From: Herbiconiux solani NBRC 106740
Lineage (GTDB): Bacteria; Actinomycetota; Actinomycetes; Actinomycetales; Microbacteriaceae
Length of the DNA: 64,000 nucleotides
Direction of reading: 5' to 3'
NCBI RefSeq assembly: GCF_001571005.1
Contig: NZ_BCST01000004.1
Span: forward strand, 248,001-312,000
Part shown: positions 44,149 to 64,000 of the stretch, piece after piece
Layout: each line of letters starts with the position of its first letter
How positions within the stretch are numbered: the stretch's first letter is position 1
Position numbers and translations under genes: made by a program
The notes under the pieces: model-generated
What the model saw: the letters and a program-made list of their open reading frames with translations, nothing else
What the model was told of the DNA's origin: nothing
Databases searched by the model: none

Positions 44149-45552
44149 ATGCTGATCATCCGCGACGCCTTCCGCACCGTGATCGACGCCGGAACCGAGT
44201 TGGGCGAGGGCACGCCCACCGGCCCGCGCGACCTCCGGCTCACCGACGTCGTCCTGCCCGACGGCGACGCCGCCACCGACAGCGCCGGCCGCCGAGACGC
44301 CGTCCGACGCGACGCCGCCGACGACGAACGAACCGACGACGAGCAAAGCGACGACGCCCCCACCACCCTCGACGCCTCCGGCTGCATCGTCACCCCCGGC
44401 CTCGTCAACGCCCACCACCACCTCCTGCAGAGCGCCTTCCGCACCCTCCCCGGTACCCGTGGCGTCGCGATGCACGAATGGCTCCCGCGCATGGCCGCCG
44501 AATATGCCGCGATCGGCATCGACCCCGAACTCGCCCGCGCCTCCGCCCTGGTCGGGGTCGCCGAGGGCCTGCTCGACGGTGTCACGACCGTCGCCGACCA
44601 CCACCTGACCTGGCCCGCCGGAAGCGACGATGTCGGCATCGCCCGCGCGACCGCGGCCGCCGCCCGTGAGCTCGGAGGGCGGCTCGCCTTCGTGCGCGGC
44701 TCGGCCCGCGACGACCCCGAGCAGGCCGCCGCCTCGGCCGACGCGATCGCCGACGCGCTGGTTCCGGATGGTCCGAACGGCATCACCGCCGACGGCCTCC
44801 TCCAGCTCGCGGTCGGCCCCGCCGGCGTGCACAGCGACTCGGCCGAGACCTTCCGGCTGCTCGGCGAGGTGGCGTCCCGCCGCGGACTCCGCCGCCGCAC
44901 CCAGGCCAACGAGCAGGTCGACGTCGCGATCGCCCTCGAGAAGTACGGCCGCCGCCCGATCGAGCTGCTCGACGAGTGGGGCTGGCTCGCCGACGACGTC
45001 ACGCTCGCCCACCTCTGCGCCGTCACCGACGCCGAAATCGCGCTGCTCGCCGAGCGCGGCGTGACCGCGACCCACGCCCCCGGCTGCGACCTGCCGATGG
45101 GCTGGGGCATCGCGCCGGTCGCCGCGCTGCTCGCCGCCGGCGTGGTGGTCGGCCTCGGCACGAGCGGCGGCGGCAGCAACGACGCCGGTCACCTGCTCGC
45201 GGATGCGCGCCTCGCCATGCAGGTCGCCCCGCTCGTCGGGCCGCCCATCGAGGCCCGCCGCATCCTGTCGATGGCGACCGAAGGGTCGTCCCTCGGCCTC
45301 GGCCGGCCCGAGCTCGGCACGCTTCGGCCCGGGTCCGGGGCCGACCTCTGCGTCTGGGACGTGAGCGGCGTCGCGGATGCGGGGGTCGCCGACCCCGTCG
45401 CCGGCCTGCTCTGGGCGTCGCCGGGCCGGCGCCCGAAGCATGTGGTCGTTGGCGGCCGCGTGGTCGTGCGCGACTACCGCCTGGTCGACCACGACGAGCA
45501 CGCCCTGGCCGCTGACCTCACGACCCTCCTGGCGTCCCGCCGAGCCGCCTGA
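44149..45552 (+). CDS. Amidohydrolase paralogue with degenerate metal site
   Basis: 467 residues, clearly related to the 8-oxoguanine deaminase-like protein on the other side of xdhC. Strand-1 ligands His89-His91 (NAHHHLLQ) and strand-6 His288 (LAHLC) are present. The strand-5 metal His is Gln252 (RTQANEQ against LHTHGSE), although Glu255 remains. The strand-8 catalytic Asp is Ser339 (GLGTSGGGSND against GLGVDGSASNE). A charged insert (RRDAVRRDAADDERTDDEQ) lies near residue 50. It may be a pseudoenzyme, a regulatory partner or a different hydrolase. The frame is intact, so it is not a pseudogene in the simple sense. Confidence 0.85.
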   Translation: MLIIRDAFRTVIDAGTELGEGTPTGPRDLRLTDVVLPDGDAATDSAGRRDAVRRDAADDERTDDEQSDDAPTTLDASGCIVTPGLVNAHHHLLQSAFRTLPGTRGVAMHEWLPRMAAEYAAIGIDPELARASALVGVAEGLLDGVTTVADHHLTWPAGSDDVGIARATAAAARELGGRLAFVRGSARDDPEQAAASADAIADALVPDGPNGITADGLLQLAVGPAGVHSDSAETFRLLGEVASRRGLRRRTQANEQVDVAIALEKYGRRPIELLDEWGWLADDVTLAHLCAVTDAEIALLAERGVTATHAPGCDLPMGWGIAPVAALLAAGVVVGLGTSGGGSNDAGHLLADARLAMQVAPLVGPPIEARRILSMATEGSSLGLGRPELGTLRPGSGADLCVWDVSGVADAGVADPVAGLLWASPGRRPKHVVVGGRVVVRDYRLVDHDEHALAADLTTLLASRRAA

Positions 45553-45602
45553 CCCGCTGACCGGCTGACGCAACCCGCTGTCCGCGGCCCGCTGTCCGCG
45601 AC

Positions 45603-45651
45603 CCGTCACTCGTTGTCGCCATCCGAGCGATCGAGCGACAACAACTGACGG
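45603..45651. repeat. Intergenic inverted repeat between convergent genes
   Basis: Arms 45603-45619 and 45635-45651 are 17 nt and pair at 15 positions around a 15-nt spacer. It lies between the convergent amidohydrolase and ferredoxin-reductase genes and probably acts as a two-way terminator. An AGAGCTC-type short repeat follows at about 45680-45710. Confidence 0.65.
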
Positions 45652-45697
45652 CTCGAGGACAGTCAGGGGCCGCCAGGAAGAGCTCAGAGCCCAGAGC

Positions 45698-46693
45698 TCA
45701 GAGCTCGAGCACCAACCGCGGGCACGCCGCGCGGGACACGCAGATCATCATGACCTCGTTCGACTCCTGCTCGGCCGGGGTCAGCACCGAGTCGCGGTGA
45801 TCCACCTCGCCCGAGACGACCGGGGTCTCGCAGGTTCCGCAGGTGCCCTCGCGGCACGACGAGAGCACGAGCACACCCGCCTCCTCGACCACGTCGAGGA
45901 TCGTCCTGTCCGGCGGCACCTCGAGGGTCATCCCCGAGAGCTCGAGCTCGACCTCGAACGACTCGTGCCGCACCGGCTCGGTCGCCTCGCGCGCCTCGAA
46001 GCGCTCCAGGTGCAGAGCGGATGCGGGCCAGCCCGCCGAGACCGCGACCGCTTCGAGCTCGGCCAGCATCCGCGCCGGCCCGCAGCAGTACACGAAGCCC
46101 GGCGCCGCCGAATCCGGCACCCCCGCCAGCTCCCGCCCGAACGCCCCCAGATCCAGCCGCCGCCCCGCATCCGCCGCGTACACCGACACCGCGTCGCCGT
46201 ACCGCTCGACCAGCTCGTCGACGAACGGCATCCGCTCGAGCGACCGCCCGGCGTAGTGCAGCACGAACTCGGCGCCGGCCCGCGAGACCGCGTCGAGCAT
46301 CGGCAGCAGCGGCGTGATCCCGATCCCTCCGGCCACGAACTCGTACCGCGCACCGGCGACCGGCGGCACCAGGGCGAAGTGGTTGAGCGGCCCGCGGGCG
46401 GTGAGCACCGTGCCCGCCGCCGCGTGGGCGTGCAGGTGCTCCGACCCGCCCCGGCCGTCGGGCTCCCGCAGCACCGCGATGCGGTAGTGCTCGCGGTCGG
46501 CCGGGTCGCCGCAGAGCGAGTACTGCCGCTCGACGCCGGGCTGCACGCGCACGTCGAGGTGCGCTCCCGGCAGCCACTCCGGCAGCGGCCCCGCCGAGGG
46601 GTCGGCGGCCCGCAGCGTCAGCATCAGCACGTCGACCGCGACCGATCGCGCCTCGGTGACGACGAGTTCGAACTCGGGAAGAGCTCCGCTCAC
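45698..46693 (-). CDS. PDR/VanB-type ferredoxin reductase with C-terminal 2Fe-2S domain
   Basis: 331 residues. Domains in order are flavin binding (ERQYSLCGDPADREHY), NAD(P)H binding (FVAGGIGITPLLPMLDA ... YCCGPARM) and a plant-type ferredoxin domain whose cluster cysteines are in SSCREGTCGTC plus a later MMICVSRA. Such reductases pass electrons from NAD(P)H to a Rieske oxygenase. No oxygenase gene is visible in the window, so its partner is elsewhere or it serves the FAD oxidase operon opposite. Its ATG overlaps the XRE-cupin stop (ATGA), so both are one transcript. Confidence 0.9.
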   Translation of the reverse strand: MSGALPEFELVVTEARSVAVDVLMLTLRAADPSAGPLPEWLPGAHLDVRVQPGVERQYSLCGDPADREHYRIAVLREPDGRGGSEHLHAHAAAGTVLTARGPLNHFALVPPVAGARYEFVAGGIGITPLLPMLDAVSRAGAEFVLHYAGRSLERMPFVDELVERYGDAVSVYAADAGRRLDLGAFGRELAGVPDSAAPGFVYCCGPARMLAELEAVAVSAGWPASALHLERFEAREATEPVRHESFEVELELSGMTLEVPPDRTILDVVEEAGVLVLSSCREGTCGTCETPVVSGEVDHRDSVLTPAEQESNEVMMICVSRAACPRLVLEL

Positions 46694-47247
46694 GATCCCG
46701 CCCTCCGCTCTTTGACGATGAACAGGTGGTACTCGCCGCCGGCCGGGGTGTGCCAGCGGTGCAGCGTGCCCCCGGCGTAGTGGATGGAGTCGCCCGGCTC
46801 GAGCGCGTAACTGCCCTCGTCGGCCAGGTCGACGAGCACGCTGCCGTCGACCACGTGCAGGAACTCGTCCTCGTCGTGCCGGTAGAACTCGCCCGGGGTG
46901 CGGTTCGACCCGCGGAACTCCATCGGGATGAACGTCACGTCGCCGTGCACCAGGATGCGCGCCTCCCCTCCGCCGAACGGCCCCTGCGGCCCCTCGCGGC
47001 GGCGCACGAGCGAGACCCGGTCGCCCGTGCCGCTCGGCACGAGGTCGTCGGTCGCCGCGGCGATGAGCTCGATCTGGCTCGAGCCGAGTGCCCGGGCGAT
47101 GCGCTCGAGCGAGACCATGCTCGGGCGGGCCTGGCCGCGTTCGAGCTGGCTGAGGAACGGATGCGACAGCTCCGCGAGCCGCGCCAGCTCGACGAGCGTC
47201 AGCCCGCGGGCCTGACGGACCGAGCGGATGCGCGCACCCAGGCGCAC
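46690..47247 (-). CDS. XRE-family regulator with C-terminal cupin domain
   Basis: About 185 residues. The N-terminal HTH (RLGARIRSVRQARGLTLVEL ... HPFLSQLERGQARPS) is followed by a cupin sensor domain (FYRHDEDEFLHVVDGSVLVD ... GDSIHYAGGTLHRWHTP). Such proteins often repress catabolic operons and respond to the pathway substrate. The start is uncertain: GTG at 47247 is the first acceptable codon, but an ATC at 47283 with AAAGGA upstream is also in frame. It is divergent from the cytosine-deaminase-like operon and is its likely regulator. Confidence 0.85.
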   Translation of the reverse strand: MRLGARIRSVRQARGLTLVELARLAELSHPFLSQLERGQARPSMVSLERIARALGSSQIELIAAATDDLVPSGTGDRVSLVRRREGPQGPFGGGEARILVHGDVTFIPMEFRGSNRTPGEFYRHDEDEFLHVVDGSVLVDLADEGSYALEPGDSIHYAGGTLHRWHTPAGGEYHLFIVKERRAGS

Positions 47248-47430
47248 GGTCTGCTCGTCGAGGGCGACGCTTCCGGAGGTGATGGGGGATCCTTTCGCTG
47301 CGCAGCCGATCGAGGGATCGGCGGCGGGTCTAGGAGACAGTAACCACGAAACCCGGCCGCGGCGAAATCGCCCACGGCGGCAATTTACATTCGGAAATGC
47401 TCGCGTTACGTGACCGAAACGAGGCGTCCG

Positions 47431-47436
47431 TAGCGT
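47431..47436 (+). promoter_or_regulatory. Candidate -10 element for catabolic operon
   Basis: TAGCGT lies 5 nt before the ATG at 47442, with no ribosome-binding site. The region between this and the XRE gene is relatively AT-rich (CAATTTACATTCGGAAATG), unlike its surroundings, and probably holds the operator. Confidence 0.5.
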
Positions 47437-47441
47437 GGCCC

Positions 47442-48887
47442 ATGTTGAAGCCATCAACATCCGAGCCCGCTGTCGCGAGCCGGTTCGACGACCGAGAACA
47501 GAAGCGGGAGATCGCCCCGGTGCATGCTCTCCCCCAGACTCTCACCCGCCTCGTGAACGCCACGCTGGCGACCGGAGAGAAGGTGGATGTCGAACTCTCC
47601 GGCGACACCGTCATCGCGGTGACCCCGGCGGGGACGCGGCCCGCCACCGCCGCGACCGCCCCCGACCCCGACCCCGAGACCACCCTCGACCTCGACGGCT
47701 TCCTCCTGCTCACCGCCCCCGCCGAACCGCACGCGCACCTGGACAAGGCCCTCTCCTGGGACCTGATCGACCCGCCGATGGGCGACCTGGTGCTCGCGAT
47801 CGAGTCGTGGAAGCGCTTCTCCGCCACCCAGACCGTCGAGAGCATCGCCGACCGCGCGAGGCGGCAGGCCCTGCTCATGCTGCAGAACGGCACGACCGCC
47901 ATCCGCTGCCACGTCGACGTGCTGCACGGCGACGACCCGATGCGCGGGGTGCGGGCACTGGTGCAGGTGCGCGACGAACTCCGTGGTCTCGTCGACCTCC
48001 AGCTCGTCGCCCTCGCCGGGCCCAGCGTGCCCGACGCCCACGTGCACGAGGCGATCAAGCTCGGCGTCGACCTCGTCGGCGGCGCTCCGCATCTGGCCGA
48101 CGACCCCGACGCCGACCTGCGCCGCCTGCTCGCGGTCGCGAGCATCCACGGCACCGGCGCCGACCTGCACACCGACGAGAGCCTGGCCGGCGCGATCACC
48201 CTCGGCACCCTCGCCGAGGAGGTGCGCGACTGGCCGGCCGACCGGCCCGTGACCGCGGGTCACTGCGTACGCCTCGGCACCCTCGAGCCCGGCGACCTCG
48301 ACCCGCTCGTCGACGCCGTCGTGGCCAGCCGCATCGGGATCGTCGCCCTCCCGATCACGAACCTCTACCTGCAGGGCTGGGAGCATCCGGTCTCCACGCC
48401 CCGCGGCCTCACCGCGGTGCGAGCGCTCCTGGATGCGGGGGTCCGGCTGGGTGCGGGCGCCGACAACGTGCGCGACCCGTTCAACCCGGTCGGCCGGAGC
48501 GACGCGCTCGAGACCGCCTCCCTCCTGGTGACCGCCGGGCACCTCACGCTCGACGAGGCGTATCGCGCGGTCAGCGACGGCGCACGGGACGTGATGGGGC
48601 TGCCGGATGCCGGCGTCGTCGTCGGGGCGCAGGCCGAACTGCTCGCCGTGCGCGGTGTCAGCCTCTCGGACGTCGTCGCGAACGCCTCCGCCGACCGGTA
48701 CGTCATCCACGCCGGACGCCTCGTAGCCCAGAGCGAGGTGCACAGCCGCATCGCCGCGCCGGCAGCCGCGGCCCCCGCCGCCGCCCGCGCAGCCGGCGCT
48801 ACCTCCGCCGCCGCAGCGACCCCCGCCAACCCCGAATCCACCCAGCCGACGACCACGCCCACCCAGCCCATTCTCGAAACGAGGTGA
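47442..48887 (+). CDS. Cytosine-deaminase-like amidohydrolase
   Basis: 481 residues. It belongs to the cytosine deaminase/CodA group of amidohydrolases: EPHAHLDKALSW (strand-1 ligands), ADLHTDE (strand 5), TAGHCVRL (strand 6) and GADNVRDPFNPVG (strand 8 Asp). Known members deaminate cytosine, isocytosine or creatinine, or dechlorinate triazines. The exact substrate cannot be read from sequence. The C-terminal ~50 residues are an Ala/Pro/Thr-rich tail. It is the first gene of an operon with an ABC importer, SDR, FAD oxidase, creatininase and PNPOx-like genes. Confidence 0.85.
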   Translation: MLKPSTSEPAVASRFDDREQKREIAPVHALPQTLTRLVNATLATGEKVDVELSGDTVIAVTPAGTRPATAATAPDPDPETTLDLDGFLLLTAPAEPHAHLDKALSWDLIDPPMGDLVLAIESWKRFSATQTVESIADRARRQALLMLQNGTTAIRCHVDVLHGDDPMRGVRALVQVRDELRGLVDLQLVALAGPSVPDAHVHEAIKLGVDLVGGAPHLADDPDADLRRLLAVASIHGTGADLHTDESLAGAITLGTLAEEVRDWPADRPVTAGHCVRLGTLEPGDLDPLVDAVVASRIGIVALPITNLYLQGWEHPVSTPRGLTAVRALLDAGVRLGAGADNVRDPFNPVGRSDALETASLLVTAGHLTLDEAYRAVSDGARDVMGLPDAGVVVGAQAELLAVRGVSLSDVVANASADRYVIHAGRLVAQSEVHSRIAAPAAAAPAAARAAGATSAAAATPANPESTQPTTTPTQPILETR

Positions 48888-48895
48888 GAAGCCCC

Positions 48896-49668
<773 letters not shown>

Positions 49669-49669
<1 letters not shown>

Positions 49670-50520
49670 TGACGACCACCCCTCCGGCCCCGCCGAAGAA
49701 CCGCACGCTGATGCGGCCGGCCACCGTCAAGAAGAGCCGCCGCGCCTCGACCACCTGGATCCCGCCGGTGCTCGTCGCCCTCGGCATCGTCGCGATCTGG
49801 TACGTCGTCAGCTACGTCGTGCTGGATGAGAAGCGCCGGTTCCTGCTGCCCCCTCCGCACGAGGTCTTCACCAAGGCCTTCTTCGACCCGACCGTGTTCG
49901 GCGACATCATGGTTGCCCTCGGCCGCACCGCGATCGTGGCGCTGGTCGGGCTCGCGATCGCGATCATCATCGGCGTCGCCTGGGCCGTCGCGATGAGCCA
50001 GGCGCGCTGGATCGAGCGTTCGACCTTCCCGTACGCCGTCATCCTCCAGTGCATCCCGATCCTCGCGCTCGTGCCGCTGATCGGCTTCTGGTTCGGCTTC
50101 GACTACCCGGCCCGCATCATCGTCTGCGTGATGATCGCGCTCTTCCCGATGGTCTCGAACACCCTCTTCGGCCTGCAATCGGTCGACAAGGGGCAGCGCG
50201 AGCTGTTCCAGCTGCAGAAGGCCTCGCGCTGGACCGTGCTGACCAAGCTCGAGTTCCCGGCCGCCCTCCCGGCGATCTTCGCGGGCATGCGGATCTCCGC
50301 GGGGCTCGCGGTGGTCGGCGCGATCGTCGGCGACTACTTCTTCCGTCGCGGCGAGCCGGGCCTGGGGTCGCTGATCTCGAACTACCAGTCCCGCGTGCAG
50401 TCGGCCGAGCTGTTCGCCGCGATCATCACCGCGTCGCTGTTCGGAGTCGTGATCTTCATCCTGTTCGGCTGGCTCGGCAAGCGCGTCGTCGGCAAGTGGT
50501 ACGACTTCTCGGCCAACTAG
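49669..50520 (+). CDS. ABC importer permease, NitT/TauT type
   Basis: 283 residues with about six transmembrane helices. It contains the coupling-loop text KASRWTVLTKLEFPAALPAI, which contacts the ATPase (EAA motif), and AGLAVVGAIVGDYFFRRGEP. It carries the solute through the membrane for the system encoded here. The start overlaps the ATP-binding gene by one base. Confidence 0.95.
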
Positions 50521-50588
50521 CACCCACTCCCAGCTGCACCACCCGCACCATGCACCATCCGTCCTGTTCCACAGCCCAAGGAGATGTC

Positions 50589-51785
50589 ATGCGCAGCACC
50601 CGAACCCGAACCCGAACCCGAACCCGAACCAGGCTCATCCTCGCCGTGGGCCTCGCCGCGACCACCGCGGCGGCGCTCTCGGCCTGCTCGAGCGGAGCAT
50701 CCGCCGGCGACGCACCCCCCGCATCCGATGTCGCGATCGGCGCCACCGACCTCTCGGGCGTCTGCCCCGCGAACGTCGTGATCCAGACCGACTGGAACCC
50801 CGAGTCCGAGCACGGGCACCTCTACCAGCTGCTCGGCCCCGACCCCGTGATCGACTCCCAGAACAAGTCCGTCTCCGGGCCGCTCTACGCGTCCGGCGAG
50901 TACACGGGCGTGAACGTCGAGATCCGCTCGGGTGGGCCGGCGATCGGCTTCCAGACCGTGACCAGCCAGATGTACACCGACCCCGACATCATGCTCGGGT
51001 ACGTCACGACCGACGAGGCCATCCAGCTCTCGGCCGACATGCCCACCACCGCGGTGTTCGCACCCCTGGACAAGAGCCCGCTGATGGTGATGTGGGATCC
51101 GGAGACCTACTCCAGCGCCAAGACCATCCAGGACGTCGTCGGAGCCGGTGCGGTCGTGCGCTACTTCGGCGGCTCGGCGTACATGGAGTACCTCACCTCG
51201 GCCGGCATCATCCCGCCGGCCCAGGCCGACGGCAGCTACGACGGCACGCCCGCGAGCTTCATCGCCTCGGGCGGCAAGGACGCGCAGCAGGGCTTCGCCT
51301 CGGCCGAGCCCTACATCTACGCCAACGAGGTCGCCGACTGGATGAAGCCGGTCGACTACGAGCTCATCCACGACACCGGGTACGAGCCCTACCAGTCGGC
51401 GATGGCGGTGCGCACCGGCGACCTCGCCGCCGACAGCGACTGCCTGAAGGCCCTCGTGCCCGTGCTGCAGCAGGCCGAGGTCGACTACTTCGCCGACCCC
51501 GCGCCGGTCAACACCCTGGTGCTCGACCTGGTCGACAAGTTCGACACCGGCTGGGTCTACTCGCAGGGCGTCGCCGACTACTCGGTGAAGACGATGATCG
51601 ACGAGGGGATCGTCGGCAACGGTCCGAACTCCACCCTGGGTGACTTCGACGACGACCGGCTGTCGAGCTTCTTCGACACCGTCGTGCCGATCTTCGACGG
51701 CCTCGGCACCCCGCCCGCCGACGGCCTCGCCGTGTCGGACATCTACACGAACGAGTTCATCGACAGCTCCATCGGGCTGAAGTAA
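50589..51785 (+). CDS. ABC importer substrate-binding lipoprotein (NMT1/Thi5-like)
   Basis: 398 residues. The signal peptide has an unusual n-region of repeated Arg-Thr pairs (residues 4-13) encoded by CGAACC repeats, and the lipobox is LSAC with Cys31. The mature protein is a periplasmic-binding-type fold related to the NMT1/Thi5 group that binds pyrimidine, riboflavin or sulfonate ligands. It delivers the ligand to the coupled permease. The gene lies 68 nt after the permease, in the same direction. Confidence 0.88.
   Translation: MRSTRTRTRTRTRTRLILAVGLAATTAAALSACSSGASAGDAPPASDVAIGATDLSGVCPANVVIQTDWNPESEHGHLYQLLGPDPVIDSQNKSVSGPLYASGEYTGVNVEIRSGGPAIGFQTVTSQMYTDPDIMLGYVTTDEAIQLSADMPTTAVFAPLDKSPLMVMWDPETYSSAKTIQDVVGAGAVVRYFGGSAYMEYLTSAGIIPPAQADGSYDGTPASFIASGGKDAQQGFASAEPYIYANEVADWMKPVDYELIHDTGYEPYQSAMAVRTGDLAADSDCLKALVPVLQQAEVDYFADPAPVNTLVLDLVDKFDTGWVYSQGVADYSVKTMIDEGIVGNGPNSTLGDFDDDRLSSFFDTVVPIFDGLGTPPADGLAVSDIYTNEFIDSSIGLK
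50601..50630 (+). repeat. CGAACC microsatellite in signal peptide
   Basis: Five perfect CGAACC units encode Arg-Thr repeats in the n-region of the lipoprotein. Changes in unit number would keep the reading frame and change the positive charge of the signal peptide. Confidence 0.95.
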
Positions 51786-51821
51786 CCCTCTCCCCCACCC
51801 GCACCGATCGAGGCCCCTCCC

Positions 51822-52592
51822 ATGACGCTCCCCACCGTGACCGACCGCCCCACGATCTCCCGGCTCGTCGGCAAGCGCATCGTCGTCACGGGGGGAGCGC
51901 GTGGGATCGGGGCCGAGATCGCGCGGCGCTTCGCCTCGGAGGGCGCCGAGGTCGCCGTCCTCGACCTGCTCGCCGAGCAGGGCTCCGCCCTCGCCGGCGA
52001 ACTCGGCTGCCACTTCGTGCCCGTCGACCTCACCGACACGGCGGGCACCACGGATGCGCTGGGTCGCGCGATCGAGACCCTCGGCGGCATCGACGTGCTC
52101 GTCAACAACGCCGGCATCCTCCGGTTCTCGCCCCTCCTCGAGATCACGGTCGACGAGTGGGAGCGGATGTTCGCGATCAACACCACCGCGATGCTCGTCA
52201 CCACCCAGCTCGCCGCCCGCTCGATGATCGCCGCCGGCACCGGCGGCACGATCATCAACCTCGCGAGCATGGCCGGGAAGACCGGCGGAGCGGGCCAGGG
52301 GCATTACGCCGCCTCCAAGGCCGCCGTCATCGCCCTGACCCGGGTGACCGCGCTGGAACTCGGCGCATCCGGGATCACGGCCAACTGCATCTGCCCGGGC
52401 TACGTGCTCACCGAGATGGGGGCCGCCACCCGCACCGAGGCCGATGTCGCCGAGTGGTCGAGCTACTCGCCGCTCGGCCGGCTCGCCGAACCCGCCGACG
52501 TGGCGGGGGTGGCCGCGTTCCTCGCCTCGGCGGATGCGGCGTACCTCACCGGGCAGGCCCTCAACGTCACCGGCGGCATGATCATGCACTGA
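51822..52592 (+). CDS. Short-chain dehydrogenase/reductase
   Basis: 256 residues, classical SDR. NAD(P)-binding TGGARGIG at 23-30, NNAG at 95-98, and catalytic Ser149, Tyr162 and Lys166. The Asp in VLDLL after strand 2 favours NAD over NADP. It oxidises or reduces a hydroxyl/carbonyl group on the pathway intermediate; the substrate is unknown. It follows the importer genes by 36 nt, so it is probably co-transcribed. Confidence 0.92.
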   Translation: MTLPTVTDRPTISRLVGKRIVVTGGARGIGAEIARRFASEGAEVAVLDLLAEQGSALAGELGCHFVPVDLTDTAGTTDALGRAIETLGGIDVLVNNAGILRFSPLLEITVDEWERMFAINTTAMLVTTQLAARSMIAAGTGGTIINLASMAGKTGGAGQGHYAASKAAVIALTRVTALELGASGITANCICPGYVLTEMGAATRTEADVAEWSSYSPLGRLAEPADVAGVAAFLASADAAYLTGQALNVTGGMIMH

Positions 52593-52682
52593 GCGGGCCG
52601 CACGCTGACCCCGCTCGCCTCCCTTCTTAACCCGACCCTCTTCCCCGACTCCCCCGATCGACCACGCACCAGAGGAACCACC

Positions 52683-54119
52683 ATGACAGCGTCACCCGAC
52701 CAGATCGCCGCCCTCGCCGAGGAGCTCACCGCCCTGCTGGGCGAGCGGGGCGTCACCACCGAGCTGCGGGGCCGCGAGAAGGCCTCCGTCGACGGCGCGA
52801 AGATGTCGCCCATCCTGTCGGAGCAGCTGCCGCTCGGCCTCGCCGACATCGTGGCCTTCCCCACGAGCGCCGAACAGATCGCCGAGATCGTGGCGGCGGC
52901 TGTGCGCCATGGCGTCTCAGTGACCCCGCGCGGCAAGGGCACGGGCAACTACGGCCAGGCCATCCCGCTCGAGGGCGGCCTCGTGCTCGACATGTCCAAG
53001 GCGCGCGCGGTCGTCGAGGTCGCCGACGGCCGGCTCACCGCCGAGGCCGGCGCCACGATGGTCGCGATCGAGCAGGCGGCCCGCGAGACGGGCCAGCAGA
53101 TCCTGATGTACCCGTCGACCGCGCAGTCCTCGATCGGCGGCTTCCTCTCGGGTGGATCCGGCGGAACCGGGTCGATCAAGCACGGCTCGAACATGAGCGG
53201 CGACTACGTGCTCGCGCTCGACGTCGTCTACGCCGGACCGGAGGCCGCGCTCGTGCACGTCGAGGGCGAGGCCGCGCAGCCCTACGTGCACACCTACGGG
53301 ACCGCCGGCATCATCGCCCGCGCAACGATCGCGCTCGAGCCGATGCAGGAGTGGGTCGGCTTCTACGCCAGCTTCCCCGCGTTCTCGGACGCCACCTCGG
53401 TGCTGCAGCAGATCGGCTGGCTCGAGCCGACGCCCCGGCTGGTCTCGGCCGACCTGCCCACGATCGCCGACGTCCTGCCGGACGACCCGGCGATCCCGAA
53501 GGGGCGCGCCTCGCTGCGCGCCATCCTCGACGCCTCGACCGTCGAGGGCGCCACCGCTCTCGTCGAGGGCGCAGGCGGCCGGGTCGAAGAGGTCCGCGAG
53601 GGGCCGCAGGCGACCGTCAAGATCTCGATGCTGAGCTACAACCACCCGATCGAGTGGTTGCAGAAGTCGTCCGACGAGAGCTACTTCCACGTCGAGGTCT
53701 CGGGTTCGGCCCTGGTCGACCGGCTCGACGAGGTGCACCAGGTCTACCCGGGCGCGATGCTGCACATCGAGGCCCAGCGCGACCACCCGATCGGCATGCT
53801 CGCCGCGCCCTACATCAGCCCCGAGGCGGTCTACGCGGGATACGACCGGCTCACCGCGCTGGGCGTGGGCTTCCACAGCCCGCACCAGTGGTTCGTCGAC
53901 CACCAGGTCGAGCGCACCAAGGCTCTCGCGGCAGAGACCGACCCGGAGGGGCTGCTCAACCCGGGCAAGCTGCCGACGGGCGAGACGGTGCCGACGGGGA
54001 CGAAATGGGCCGGGGCGAGCCGGGCCGGTGCCGCGGCGGATGAGGCGGTCGGCGAGGCGGCCCACGCTGCGGCCGACACGGCGGCCGGTGCTGCGGCCGA
54101 CGAGGCGGTGCGCGCGTGA
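52683..54119 (+). CDS. FAD-binding oxidoreductase, VAO/GlcD type
   Basis: 478 residues. The N-terminal PCMH-type FAD domain has TPRGKGTGNYGQAIPLEGGL and STAQSSIGGFLSGGSGGTGS, which bind the pyrophosphate. The family includes glycolate oxidase, lactate dehydrogenases and alditol oxidases, so it oxidises a C-H next to OH or N. The C-terminal ~45 residues are an Ala/Asp/Glu repeat tail (AADEAVGEAAH type). Its stop overlaps the creatininase GTG (GTGA at 54116-54119), so they are coupled. Confidence 0.9.
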   Translation: MTASPDQIAALAEELTALLGERGVTTELRGREKASVDGAKMSPILSEQLPLGLADIVAFPTSAEQIAEIVAAAVRHGVSVTPRGKGTGNYGQAIPLEGGLVLDMSKARAVVEVADGRLTAEAGATMVAIEQAARETGQQILMYPSTAQSSIGGFLSGGSGGTGSIKHGSNMSGDYVLALDVVYAGPEAALVHVEGEAAQPYVHTYGTAGIIARATIALEPMQEWVGFYASFPAFSDATSVLQQIGWLEPTPRLVSADLPTIADVLPDDPAIPKGRASLRAILDASTVEGATALVEGAGGRVEEVREGPQATVKISMLSYNHPIEWLQKSSDESYFHVEVSGSALVDRLDEVHQVYPGAMLHIEAQRDHPIGMLAAPYISPEAVYAGYDRLTALGVGFHSPHQWFVDHQVERTKALAAETDPEGLLNPGKLPTGETVPTGTKWAGASRAGAAADEAVGEAAHAAADTAAGAAADEAVRA

Positions 54120-54907
54120 GCGGCCCCGCGAGCCGCAAGCTCGTCGAGCTCTCGGGCGACGGCCTCGCCCGCGCCCTGTCGGCCGACTCGGTCGTCGTGC
54201 TGCCGACCGGTGCGATCGAGTACCACGGGCCGCACCTCCCCCTCGTGACCGACTACCTGATCGCCGACAGCGTCGCCAACGCGTCGGTCGCCGCGGCCGC
54301 CGCGGCCGGGCAGGACGTCTGGATCCTCCCGACGCTCGCGTACACCAAGTCCGACGAGCACCACTGGGCCCCCGGCACGATGTGGATCAGCTGGGACACG
54401 CTCATGCAGACCGTGGTCGAGCTCGGCAACTCGATCGCGGCGACCCCGGCGAAGAAGCTCGTCTTCTTCAACGGCCACGGCGGAAACCTGGCGCTGCTGC
54501 AGGTGGCGAGCCGGGAGTTGCGACGCCGGTTCGGGCTGCAGACCTTCTTGATGGGCGCGACCGTGCCGCCCGGTGACCACGACGGCCCTGAGGAGCTGGG
54601 CCTCGGCATCCACGCCGGTCACTCCGAGACCTCGCTCGTGCTGCACCTGCGCCCCGACCTGGTCGACCTCTCGGTCGCCGAGCGGAGCGTGCCCGAGCAT
54701 CTCGCCGACTTCGAGCACATCGGTTTCCGCAAGCGCGTGAGCTTCGGCTGGCTCTCGAACGACTTCGGCACCAACGGCACCCTCGGCGACCCGACGGGTG
54801 CGACGGCGGCCTACGGCGCCCGGCTCTTCGACCGCTCGGTCGAGGATGCGGTGGCCGCGTTCGCCGAGATCGCCCGCTTCGACGCGGCGGGCGGGGCGTC
54901 GGCGTGA
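54116..54907 (+). CDS. Creatininase-family amidohydrolase
   Basis: 263 residues. Metal-binding and catalytic positions of the family are present: Glu35 and His37 in GAIEYHGPHLPL, Asp46 in VTDYL, FFNGHGGN and HAGHSETS. Members include creatinine amidohydrolase, the mycofactocin peptidase MftE and a flavin-pathway deformylase. They open cyclic or linear amides using two metals. Mycofactocin genes are absent, so hydrolysis of a cyclic amide intermediate fits the operon better. It is coupled on both sides by GTGA overlaps. Confidence 0.9.
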   Translation: MSGPASRKLVELSGDGLARALSADSVVVLPTGAIEYHGPHLPLVTDYLIADSVANASVAAAAAAGQDVWILPTLAYTKSDEHHWAPGTMWISWDTLMQTVVELGNSIAATPAKKLVFFNGHGGNLALLQVASRELRRRFGLQTFLMGATVPPGDHDGPEELGLGIHAGHSETSLVLHLRPDLVDLSVAERSVPEHLADFEHIGFRKRVSFGWLSNDFGTNGTLGDPTGATAAYGARLFDRSVEDAVAAFAEIARFDAAGGASA

Positions 54908-55518
54908 CGAGCGAGGTGCAGGCCGACGCCTCCCCCGAGCACTTCCCCGAGCACCTCCCCGAGGCGCCGGAGACCCTCCTCGCCGCCTGGCTCCCGGCCA
55001 ACGACGACCCCGTGCGCCCGCTGATGACCCTCAGCACCCTGACGGCGAGCGGGTATCCGGATGCGCGCACGGTCCTGCTCTCCGAGTACGACGACAGCGG
55101 CTTCTATTTCCACACCGACTCGCGGTCGCGCAAGGTGGCCGACGTCACGCGCGACCCCCGGGTGGCGCTCACGCTGGTCTGGCCGGGCCGGCAGCTGACG
55201 GTGCAGGGCGAGGCACACCGGTCGTCGATGGATGAACGGGGCTGGGCCTACGAGCACCGCAGCCGCTACCTGCAGCAGCTCGCCTGGCTCAACACCCCCG
55301 ACTTCGCCGAGCTCCCGCTCGCCGAGCGCCTGACGCGTTGGGCCGACTTCGACGCCGAGCATCCGGCCCTCACCCCGCCGGACACCTGGGACGGCTTCCT
55401 CGTCCGTCCCGTCCGCCTCACCTTCTGGCAGGGCCGCCCCGACACCGCCTCCCGCCGCACCGAGTACCGCCGCCCCACCCCCTCCACCCCCTGGACCCGC
55501 CACCACCTCCCCGGCTGA
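54904..55518 (+). CDS. Pyridoxamine 5'-phosphate oxidase-like flavoprotein
   Basis: 204 residues. The FMN-binding split-barrel is complete, with MTLSTLTASGYPDARTVLLS, FYFHTDSRSRKVADV and RLTFWQGRPDTASRRTEYR at the C-terminus. This resembles PdxH, which makes pyridoxal phosphate. Its position as the last gene of the catabolic operon suggests a flavin-dependent step on a pathway intermediate, but true PdxH activity is possible. It starts at GTG overlapping the creatininase stop. Confidence 0.85.
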   Translation: MTSEVQADASPEHFPEHLPEAPETLLAAWLPANDDPVRPLMTLSTLTASGYPDARTVLLSEYDDSGFYFHTDSRSRKVADVTRDPRVALTLVWPGRQLTVQGEAHRSSMDERGWAYEHRSRYLQQLAWLNTPDFAELPLAERLTRWADFDAEHPALTPPDTWDGFLVRPVRLTFWQGRPDTASRRTEYRRPTPSTPWTRHHLPG

Positions 55519-63164: not shown

Positions 63165-63509
63165 TCAGCTGCCTCGGTAGGTGGAGTAGGCGAAGGGGCT
63201 GAGGAGGAGGGGCACGTGGTAGTGCGCGTTCGCGTCGGCGAGCTCGAAGATGATCTGCACCTCGGGGTAGAAGGCCTTGACCTCCTGCTCGGCGAAGTAG
63301 ACGCCGGTGTCGAAGCTCACGCGGTAGCGGCCGGGATGCAGCTGCGCCGGCCCGAGCGCGTTGACCCGCCCGTCGGCGTCGGTCTCGGCCGAGGCGATCA
63401 TGACCCAGTTGCCCACCTCGTCACGCTCGAGGATGACGGGGACACCCGCCGCCGGCCGCCCGATCGTCGAGTCGAGGACGTGGGTGGTGACGTGACTGCG
63501 GTCGGTCAT
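63165..63509 (-). CDS. uraH: 5-Hydroxyisourate hydrolase
   Basis: 114 residues, transthyretin-like fold. Converts 5-hydroxyisourate to OHCU. The N-terminal motif HVLDSTIGRPAAGVPV, an Arg in RYRVSFDTG, and the C-terminal signature tetrapeptide YRGS are all present. The last distinguishes the enzyme from vertebrate transthyretin. It lies between uraD and the membrane protein on the minus strand. Confidence 0.97.
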   Translation of the reverse strand: MTDRSHVTTHVLDSTIGRPAAGVPVILERDEVGNWVMIASAETDADGRVNALGPAQLHPGRYRVSFDTGVYFAEQEVKAFYPEVQIIFELADANAHYHVPLLLSPFAYSTYRGS

Positions 63510-63575: not shown

Positions 63576-64000
63576 TCAGGCGGGGTAGAGGGAGCGGAGG
63601 CGGAGCATCGTGATGTCGTGCAGCTCACTCGCGACCGTGGCGGCCTCGGCGGCGTCTGAGAGGGTGAGGCGGCGCTCCAGCTCGGCGAGGATCTCGGCCC
63701 GGCCCCGCCCGGCGGCCCGGATGAGGAAGACCCGATCGAACCGCTCCTCGTAGGCCTGATTGCCGCGGGTGATCGCGTCGGCGAGGGCCTCGTCGCTCGC
63801 CTCGGCGGCCGACTGCTCGGACGCACTGAACCGCTGGGCCTGACCGTCGCCCACCGCACGCTCGCCAATGCGGGGGTGGTGGGCGAGCGCGGCATCCACC
63901 TCGGCCGGGGTCAAGGTCGCCGCCACACGATCGGCGACCGCCAGCAGCTCGGCCGCCGACGCGAACGGCGCCGCCGCCGCGACCTCCTCGACGAACCGCT
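63576..64000 (-). CDS. uraD: OHCU decarboxylase, 5' end outside window
   Basis: The frame is open to the window edge. Upstream of the GTG at 63926 the translated text FVEEVAAAAPFASAAELL continues the family, so that GTG is not the start and about 141 C-terminal residues are visible. HPRIGE carries the catalytic His and SASEQSAAE the conserved EQ. The enzyme makes S-allantoin from OHCU. It is the first gene of a minus-strand run uraD, uraH, membrane protein. Confidence 0.93.
   Translation of the reverse strand, partial: RFVEEVAAAAPFASAAELLAVADRVAATLTPAEVDAALAHHPRIGERAVGDGQAQRFSASEQSAAEASDEALADAITRGNQAYEERFDRVFLIRAAGRGRAEILAELERRLTLSDAAEAATVASELHDITMLRLRSLYPA

What the first reader, a model, noticed from the sequence alone, without database searches (positions are those of the whole stretch)
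46690..55518. Unassigned catabolic system: deaminase-like amidohydrolase, ABC importer, SDR, FAD oxidase, creatininase and PNPOx-like operon
Seen: eight same-direction genes from 47442 to 55518 with short gaps or ATGA/GTGA overlaps, facing an XRE-cupin regulator coupled to a PDR-type ferredoxin reductase. Established: cytosine-deaminase-like enzymes deaminate small N-rings, NMT1-type importers bind pyrimidine-like ligands, and creatininase-family enzymes hydrolyse cyclic amides. Inference: the operon imports and degrades one small nitrogen heterocycle by deamination, oxidation and ring opening. I know no pathway with this exact set. Creatinine, a methylated pyrimidine or a vitamin fragment are candidates.
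Basis: partly seen in the sequence, partly recalled or inferred. Interest (0 to 1): 0.75.

Follow-up and report, generated by a model that had tools for sequence, protein, structure and literature searches.

The report
Probable pterin-breakdown operon with nitrogen control
A soil bacterium carries a switch-controlled set of genes that probably imports and takes apart pterin, the ring part of the vitamin folate, as a nitrogen source; the same set recurs in very different bacteria, and one of its enzymes is a distant relative of a crystallised enzyme described as part of folate breakdown.

The parts
44149..45552 (+). AH2, amidohydrolase of the 8-oxoguanine deaminase / TrzN branch, frequent partner of the operon
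   Evidence: PF01979; 8-oxoguanine deaminase cut-off not met, 255.1 of 532 bits; best solved relative TrzN 3ls9; altered metal site in 30 of 30 orthologs, window included
45698..46693 (-). PDR-type flavin/2Fe-2S reductase
   Evidence: PF00111, PF00175; within 10 kb in 34 of 43 actinobacterial loci; no VanA-type Rieske oxygenase over cut-off in the own genome
46690..47283 (-). XRE-cupin regulator; probable AUC start at 47283 (ORF as listed runs to 47460)
   Evidence: HTH and cupin domains; start analysis
47336..47347 (.). conserved block GACAGTAACCAC in the divergent promoter region
   Evidence: near-invariant in 14 aligned genus sequences
47405..47420 (+). GlnR-type box GTTAC-n6-GAAAC
   Evidence: only match in the window, 0.18 expected; 14 genome matches against 1 for the reversed control
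47443..47459 (.). palindromic operator TGTTGA-N5-TCAACA
   Evidence: once in the whole genome with up to 1 mismatch; in 26 of 45 upstream regions of related operons
47520..48887 (+).
   Evidence: Amidohydro_3; metal/catalytic residues kept
48896..49669 (+). ABC importer ATPase
   Evidence: PF00005; nearest NCBIfam taurine/nitrate type, below cut-offs
49669..50520 (+). ABC importer permease
   Evidence: PF00528
50589..51785 (+). substrate-binding lipoprotein (NMT1-like by clustering)
   Evidence: no Pfam/NCBIfam hit; clusters with NMT1 proteins
51822..52592 (+). SDR oxidoreductase, optional part
   Evidence: PF13561/PF00106; no SDR match in 4 of 14 fetched genus loci that cover this stretch at least in part (L032, L033, L035, L037) nor in the outgroup L023
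52683..54119 (+). FAD, VAO-fold flavin enzyme of the 6V42 folate-catabolism flavin oxygenase branch
54116..54907 (+). CRN, creatininase-family amidohydrolase
   Evidence: PF02633 214.5 bits; E35, D46, H121, E171 in 68 of 68 and H37 in 67 of 68 aligned relatives
54904..55518 (+). PNPOx-like flavoprotein, proposed flavin reductase/electron donor
   Evidence: PF01243, PF10590; PdxH cut-off not met, 94.5 of 180 bits
58664..59857 (-). MTHFR-like protein with DUF5981, frequent neighbour
   Evidence: PF12225 over its cut-off, PF02219 just under; 14 of 43 actinobacterial loci, next to CD in Klenkia

Best explanation
It is a nitrogen-scavenging operon for a pterin-type heterocycle, most likely derived from folate. 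An ABC importer brings the ring in. The cytosine-deaminase-like enzyme removes its exocyclic amino group (pterin to lumazine type). The VAO-fold flavin enzyme, fed by a flavin/2Fe-2S reductase (PDR) and perhaps the PNPOx-like protein, oxidatively attacks the ring, in the manner of a two-component flavin oxygenase (an analogy with the Rut system, not a membership). The creatininase-family enzyme hydrolyses the resulting cyclic or acyclic amide. Freed ring parts may enter the xanthine-urate-allantoin genes that surround the operon. GlnR turns it on under nitrogen limitation and the XRE-cupin protein controls it through its own palindrome. Shown: gene content, conservation, fold, active-site residues, promoter sites. 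Inferred: substrate, order of steps, regulator-site pairing.
Against: The folate link is a PDB title; no paper or assay was seen. The window FAD protein is only 27% identical to 6v42, so the substrate may have shifted. No folate-specific gene such as a p-aminobenzoylglutamate hydrolase was recognised among the operon proteins scanned. Purine-type genes near the operon, and a xanthine riboswitch in 1 of 14 scanned proteobacterial loci, fit a purine just as well. No oxygen-using activity is shown. amtB has no exact GlnR box in this genome, and no GlnR gene was sought.
Confidence: 0.6

Rival explanations
1. The operon degrades an oxidised or modified purine, or a purine-derived hydantoin/ureide, and hands products to the surrounding xanthine-allantoin genes; the folate title applies only to the proteobacterial branch.
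For: Island with 8-oxoguanine deaminase, allantoinase and urate oxidase over their cut-offs and an XDH-like gene below its cut-off; purine-type genes in 13 of 43 genus labels, in three phyla; the Klebsiella locus has a xanthine riboswitch beside it; the Rieske oxygenase directly behind such riboswitches in one genome is 64% and 47% identical to Rieskes in two FAD loci, though only about 30% identical to those of Paenibacillus; a second FAD+SBP pair lies beside Ureidogly_lyase and a PnrA-like protein.
Against: The host already has a complete-looking urate route; I recall no purine step that needs this FAD + creatininase pair; riboswitch in only 1 of 14 loci.
Confidence: 0.25
2. Creatinine or a pyrimidine (cytosine, thymine, HMP) is the substrate.
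For: Creatininase and cytosine-deaminase families; nitrogen-controlled creatinine transport and metabolism by crnT and codA is known in Corynebacterium (passage in PMC4222082).
Against: Creatininase equivalog 82.4 of 235 bits; recalled cytosine contacts replaced in 61 of 66; no creatinase, sarcosine oxidase or hydantoinase was recognised among the operon proteins scanned; flavin enzyme unexplained.
Confidence: 0.07
3. A xenobiotic s-triazine route: AH2 resembles TrzN and CD resembles AtzC.
For: AH2 best solved match TrzN 213 bits; CD matches AtzC-type entries at 61.5-84.3 bits.
Against: FAD gene in 15 of 16 genus genomes, own included, and across phyla, unlike a recent xenobiotic island; AH2 lacks the TrzN metal histidine; CodA scores higher than AtzC with CD.
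Confidence: 0.03

Closest known systems
Flavin oxygenase of folate catabolism, PDB 6V42/6V43 (title seen; no paper seen)
   Different: 27% identity; different phylum; with the Rhizobium and Klebsiella queries no FMN_red or RidA gene was found in 43 actinobacterial loci, where PDR and PNPOx are common instead
Rut pyrimidine pathway (recalled)
   Same: Works alike: flavin enzyme plus flavin reductase plus amide hydrolase, with a RidA protein in proteobacterial versions
   Different: RutA is a luciferase-fold enzyme and RutB an isochorismatase-type hydrolase (recalled); neither family is among the operon proteins
E. coli CodA cytosine/isoguanine deaminase
   Same: Metal and catalytic residues
   Different: Gln157 kept in 5 and Asp315 in 5 of 66 relatives (precursor numbering); 27% identity
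Mycofactocin creatininase MftE
   Same: Best NCBIfam match of CRN, 145.5 bits
   Different: Cut-off 172 not met
Xanthine-riboswitch (NMT1 motif) gene sets, PMC7373994
   Same: NMT1 proteins, tauA-type ABC, PDR, PRK12393-type amidohydrolases, tadA-type deaminases, dioxygenases (passages)
   Different: No riboswitch in the window; FAD and creatininase genes are not in the passages seen

Membership tests
6V42-type folate-catabolism flavin oxygenase | full-length fold | tested here: met
6V42-type folate-catabolism flavin oxygenase | same operon partners as the close relative of 6V42 | tested here: met
   CD, ABC and creatininase shared by Rhizobium and window loci
6V42-type folate-catabolism flavin oxygenase | oxygenation of a folate-derived pterin | not testable with these tools
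   no assay
Cytosine deaminase (CodA) | metal and catalytic residues | tested here: met
   HxH, E, H, D in 66 of 66; the further His in 61 of 66
Cytosine deaminase (CodA) | substrate contacts Gln157/Asp315 (role recalled) and equivalog cut-off | tested here: not met
   Gln kept in 5 of 66, Asp in 5 of 66; 170.8 of 403 bits
Creatininase | Pfam family and metal-ligand positions (roles recalled) | tested here: met
   PF02633 over cut-off; positions conserved
Creatininase | creatininase equivalog TIGR04448 | tested here: not met
   82.4 of 235 bits
Mycofactocin MftE | equivalog TIGR03964 | tested here: not met
   145.5 of 172 bits
PdxH | equivalog cut-off TIGR00558 | tested here: not met
   94.5 of 180 bits
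8-oxoguanine deaminase (for AH2) | equivalog cut-off and metal ligands | tested here: not met
   255.1 of 532 bits; His to Gln and Asp to Ser in 30 of 30
GlnR regulon | gTnAc-n6-GaAAc box (PMC10704036, passages) | tested here: met
   47405-47420; read in 14 of 14 aligned genus promoters
GlnR regulon | GlnR binding and nitrogen response | not testable with these tools
   no assay; GlnR gene not sought
Xanthine riboswitch regulon | RF03054 upstream | tested here: not met
   window has no RF03054 at gathering score
Rut pathway | RutA-type luciferase-fold enzyme and RutB-type hydrolase | tested here: not met
   none among the ten proteins scanned; an isochorismatase-type gene does lie near the set in one Streptomyces locus (L086)

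The most novel reading that the evidence does not exclude
A GlnR-controlled pathway that dismantles the pteridine ring of folate and feeds it into the purine route (pterin to lumazine, oxidised lumazine, then xanthine or urate), encoded as one island with XDH-like, urate oxidase and allantoinase genes. It would explain why deaminases, a flavin oxygenase, a creatininase relative, an MTHFR relative, xanthine-riboswitch genes and purine genes keep meeting, and would make this gene set a candidate home for the old tetrahydroxypteridine-to-xanthine-8-carboxylate step (recalled).
Probability: 0.3. Interest if true: 0.8.

Novelty: new variant of a known kind. Interest (0 to 1): 0.55.

Why it matters
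If true, it gives a gene-level, testable route for breakdown of the pterin half of a vitamin in many bacteria, with its own operator and nitrogen switch, and it offers a reason why NMT1-type importers, deaminases and oxygenases occur next to purine genes and, in places, next to xanthine riboswitches. It also gives many 'cytosine deaminase', 'creatininase family' and 'FAD-binding oxidoreductase' annotations (at least 591 relatives of the FAD protein) a shared function to test.

Tried and rejected

Limits of the counts: the 80 loci are the best of at least 591 relatives and lean to Actinomycetota; 11 of 80 were dropped for less than 4 kb on a side; many loci are close relatives, and the 43 genus labels are mine from record titles, some at family level. 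Presence was called by tblastn at E<=1e-10 and 30% coverage, so an 'XDH' or 'allantoinase' hit may be another member of those families. CDA-type genes also occur beside CD in several actinobacterial loci. The 40 control windows come from seven actinobacterial genomes only. Background windows were drawn from the same loci and may contain the true sites. Genus promoter counts (14 of 14, window included) were read from the alignment. Counts of AH2, CD and CRN residues include the window protein.
Full report
What is there. The window lies in a 3.85-Mb genome whose nearest named relatives in the scan are Herbiconiux (89% identical FAD protein). From 44149 to 55518 run AH2 (+), PDR (-), XRE-cupin (-) and then eight + strand genes CD, ATP, PERM, SBP, SDR, FAD, CRN, PNPOx. 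The surroundings are a purine island. Over their curated cut-offs are 8-oxoguanine deaminase (595.3 bits, cut-off 532), allantoinase (545.4, cut-off 357.85) and urate oxidase (334.3, cut-off 168.4); below theirs are a fused xanthine-dehydrogenase-like protein (500.9 of 780), an XdhC-like protein and several molybdenum-cofactor-type proteins. ORFs at 63165-63509 and 63576-64000 look like HIU hydrolase and OHCU decarboxylase (sequence reading only).

Is it more than chance? In the genus 15 of 16 genomes, own included, carry the FAD gene at E<=1e-20, with the same partners around it as far as the fetched loci reach. In an even draw from the phylum only 2 of 396 genomes have it at E<=1e-40, the own genome being one. 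A scan of the collection of 84,980 species genomes found at least 591 relatives of the FAD protein, of which the best 80 were kept. Of these, 69 have at least 4 kb on both sides; 58 have the creatininase, 63 a CD or CDA-type deaminase, 62 all three ABC parts, and 56 all of these, spread over Actinomycetota 39, Bacillota 6, Pseudomonadota 6, Acidobacteriota 5. The 13 that lack some part include three Klenkia loci and all five cyanobacterial ones counted. Variable companions: PDR 34, XRE 36, PNPOx 32, AH2 29, SDR 15, MTHFR-like 14, FMN reductase 8, RidA 7, Rieske/2OG oxygenase 6 of 69. Annotated plasmid records show the core set in Klebsiella, Pantoea, Comamonadaceae, Roseateles, Rhizobium, Pseudooceanicola and Paroceanicella and reduced versions in Agrobacterium F2 (no deaminase listed) and Ruegeria (no ATPase or permease listed).

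What the other enzymes can do. CD keeps the amidohydrolase residues (HxH, E, H and D in 66 of 66 aligned relatives, a further His in 61), but CodA's Gln157 and Asp315 are kept in only 5 of 66 each; that these contact cytosine is recalled. So it should act on another ring. In the five acidobacterial loci counted, a CDA-type deaminase is present and CD is not, which supports deamination as a step; such genes also occur beside CD in several actinobacterial loci. CRN keeps its recalled metal-ligand positions in 67-68 of 68 relatives and should be an active amide hydrolase; its best NCBIfam match is MftE at 145.5 bits, under the cut-off of 172. PDR, PNPOx and FMN reductase genes alternate by phylum, and RidA genes join in Pseudomonadota; this resembles the two-component flavin oxygenase logic of the Rut pathway (recalled), by other protein families.

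Control. The 236-bp divergent region of 14 genus members holds short conserved blocks in otherwise variable DNA. One is GTTAC-n6-GAAAC, which fits the published GlnR box gTnAc-n6-GaAAc (passages of PMC10704036). GTnAC-n6-GAAAC occurs 14 times in the genome against 1 for the reversed pattern; one copy lies about 100 bp before glnA (647.5 bits, cut-off 429.15), though amtB has none; the other twelve sites were not all identified. The second block is the palindrome TGTTGA-N5-TCAACA at 47443-47459. It occurs once in the whole genome with up to one mismatch. Forty-three of 197 loci in hand have exactly one copy each (two are pieces of the own genome, and L028 and L039 look like one contig fetched twice); none is among the 40 control windows or the loci from outside Actinomycetota. 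Upstream of CD it is in 26 of 45 actinobacterial loci against 2.3% of random windows; the GlnR-type box in 15 of 45 against 2.6%. Box and palindrome are 38 bp apart in 24 of 25 cases and 37 in one, many of them close relatives. The palindrome is present in 27 of 37 loci with the XRE-cupin gene and 0 of 9 without it (Fisher p 8e-5; relatedness not corrected); the ten exceptions include the Streptomyces and Nocardioides loci. So it is probably the XRE-cupin operator, with GlnR as activator.

Purine link. XDH-, urate oxidase-, HIU hydrolase-, OHCU decarboxylase- or allantoinase-like genes lie within 10 kb in 15 of 69 loci (13 of 43 genus labels; Actinomycetota, Bacillota and Acidobacteriota) against 1 of 40 control windows. 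Rhizobium leguminosarum pRL12 has genes annotated as XDH family next door. In Klebsiella a xanthine riboswitch (63.4 bits, threshold 36) precedes an adjacent operon of binding protein, amidohydrolase and 2OG-Fe(II) oxygenase, and 2OG-type oxygenases lie inside the FAD gene sets of Agrobacterium F2 and Paroceanicella. The Rieske oxygenase directly behind xanthine riboswitches in another genome is 64% and 47% identical to Rieskes beside FAD genes in a Burkholderiales and a Reyranella locus, but only about 30% identical to the Paenibacillus ones. And riboswitches were absent from 13 of 14 proteobacterial loci. Pterins resemble purines and xanthine dehydrogenase oxidises pterins (recalled), so a pterin route that ends in purine-type products would unite both sets of evidence; a plain purine substrate is the main rival.

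Verdict. What seems new here is the breadth of the set, its embedding in a purine island, the GlnR-type box plus dedicated operator, and the odd AH2 and AUC-start features.

Noticed in passing
46690-47283, start codon 47281-47283: The XRE-cupin gene probably starts with AUC: the codon is ATC in 12 of 14 genus members and ATG (one codon on) in 2; L033 and L034 have no in-frame ATG, GTG or TTG between the upstream stop and the HTH; L027 and L029 have a GTG right after the ATC, and several have a GTG at the edge of the HTH.
   Followed up: partly
44149-45552: AH2, a frequent neighbour, has Gln for the metal His of HxxE and Ser for the metal Asp in 30 of 30 orthologs; TrzN keeps the His and has Thr at the second site (metal roles recalled). 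It may have a changed reaction.
   Followed up: partly
L004:1330-1383 (Klebsiella plasmid record): Xanthine riboswitch beside the gene set, in front of a neighbouring binding protein, amidohydrolase and 2OG oxygenase.
   Followed up: yes
L024 9170-11690 (second paralogue in one genus member): A second FAD + binding-protein pair (64%/63%) lies next to a Ureidogly_lyase gene, two luciferase-like monooxygenases and a PnrA-like protein.
   Followed up: partly
L108: An Opitutales contig has three tandem FAD genes and several binding-protein genes with one ABC transporter.
   Followed up: no
50589-50640: The signal region of the lipoprotein is a run of CGAACC-type repeats coding for Arg-Thr repeats.
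   Followed up: no
48740-48887 and 54010-54119: Ala-rich low-complexity C-terminal tails on CD and FAD; the FAD tail is modelled at pLDDT about 51-69.
   Followed up: no
own genome C2 and C13: Two further creatininase-family genes besides the one in the operon.
   Followed up: no
L124:4600-4675: TwoAYGGAY RNA (46.8 bits, threshold 43) near the gene set in Pantoea.
   Followed up: no
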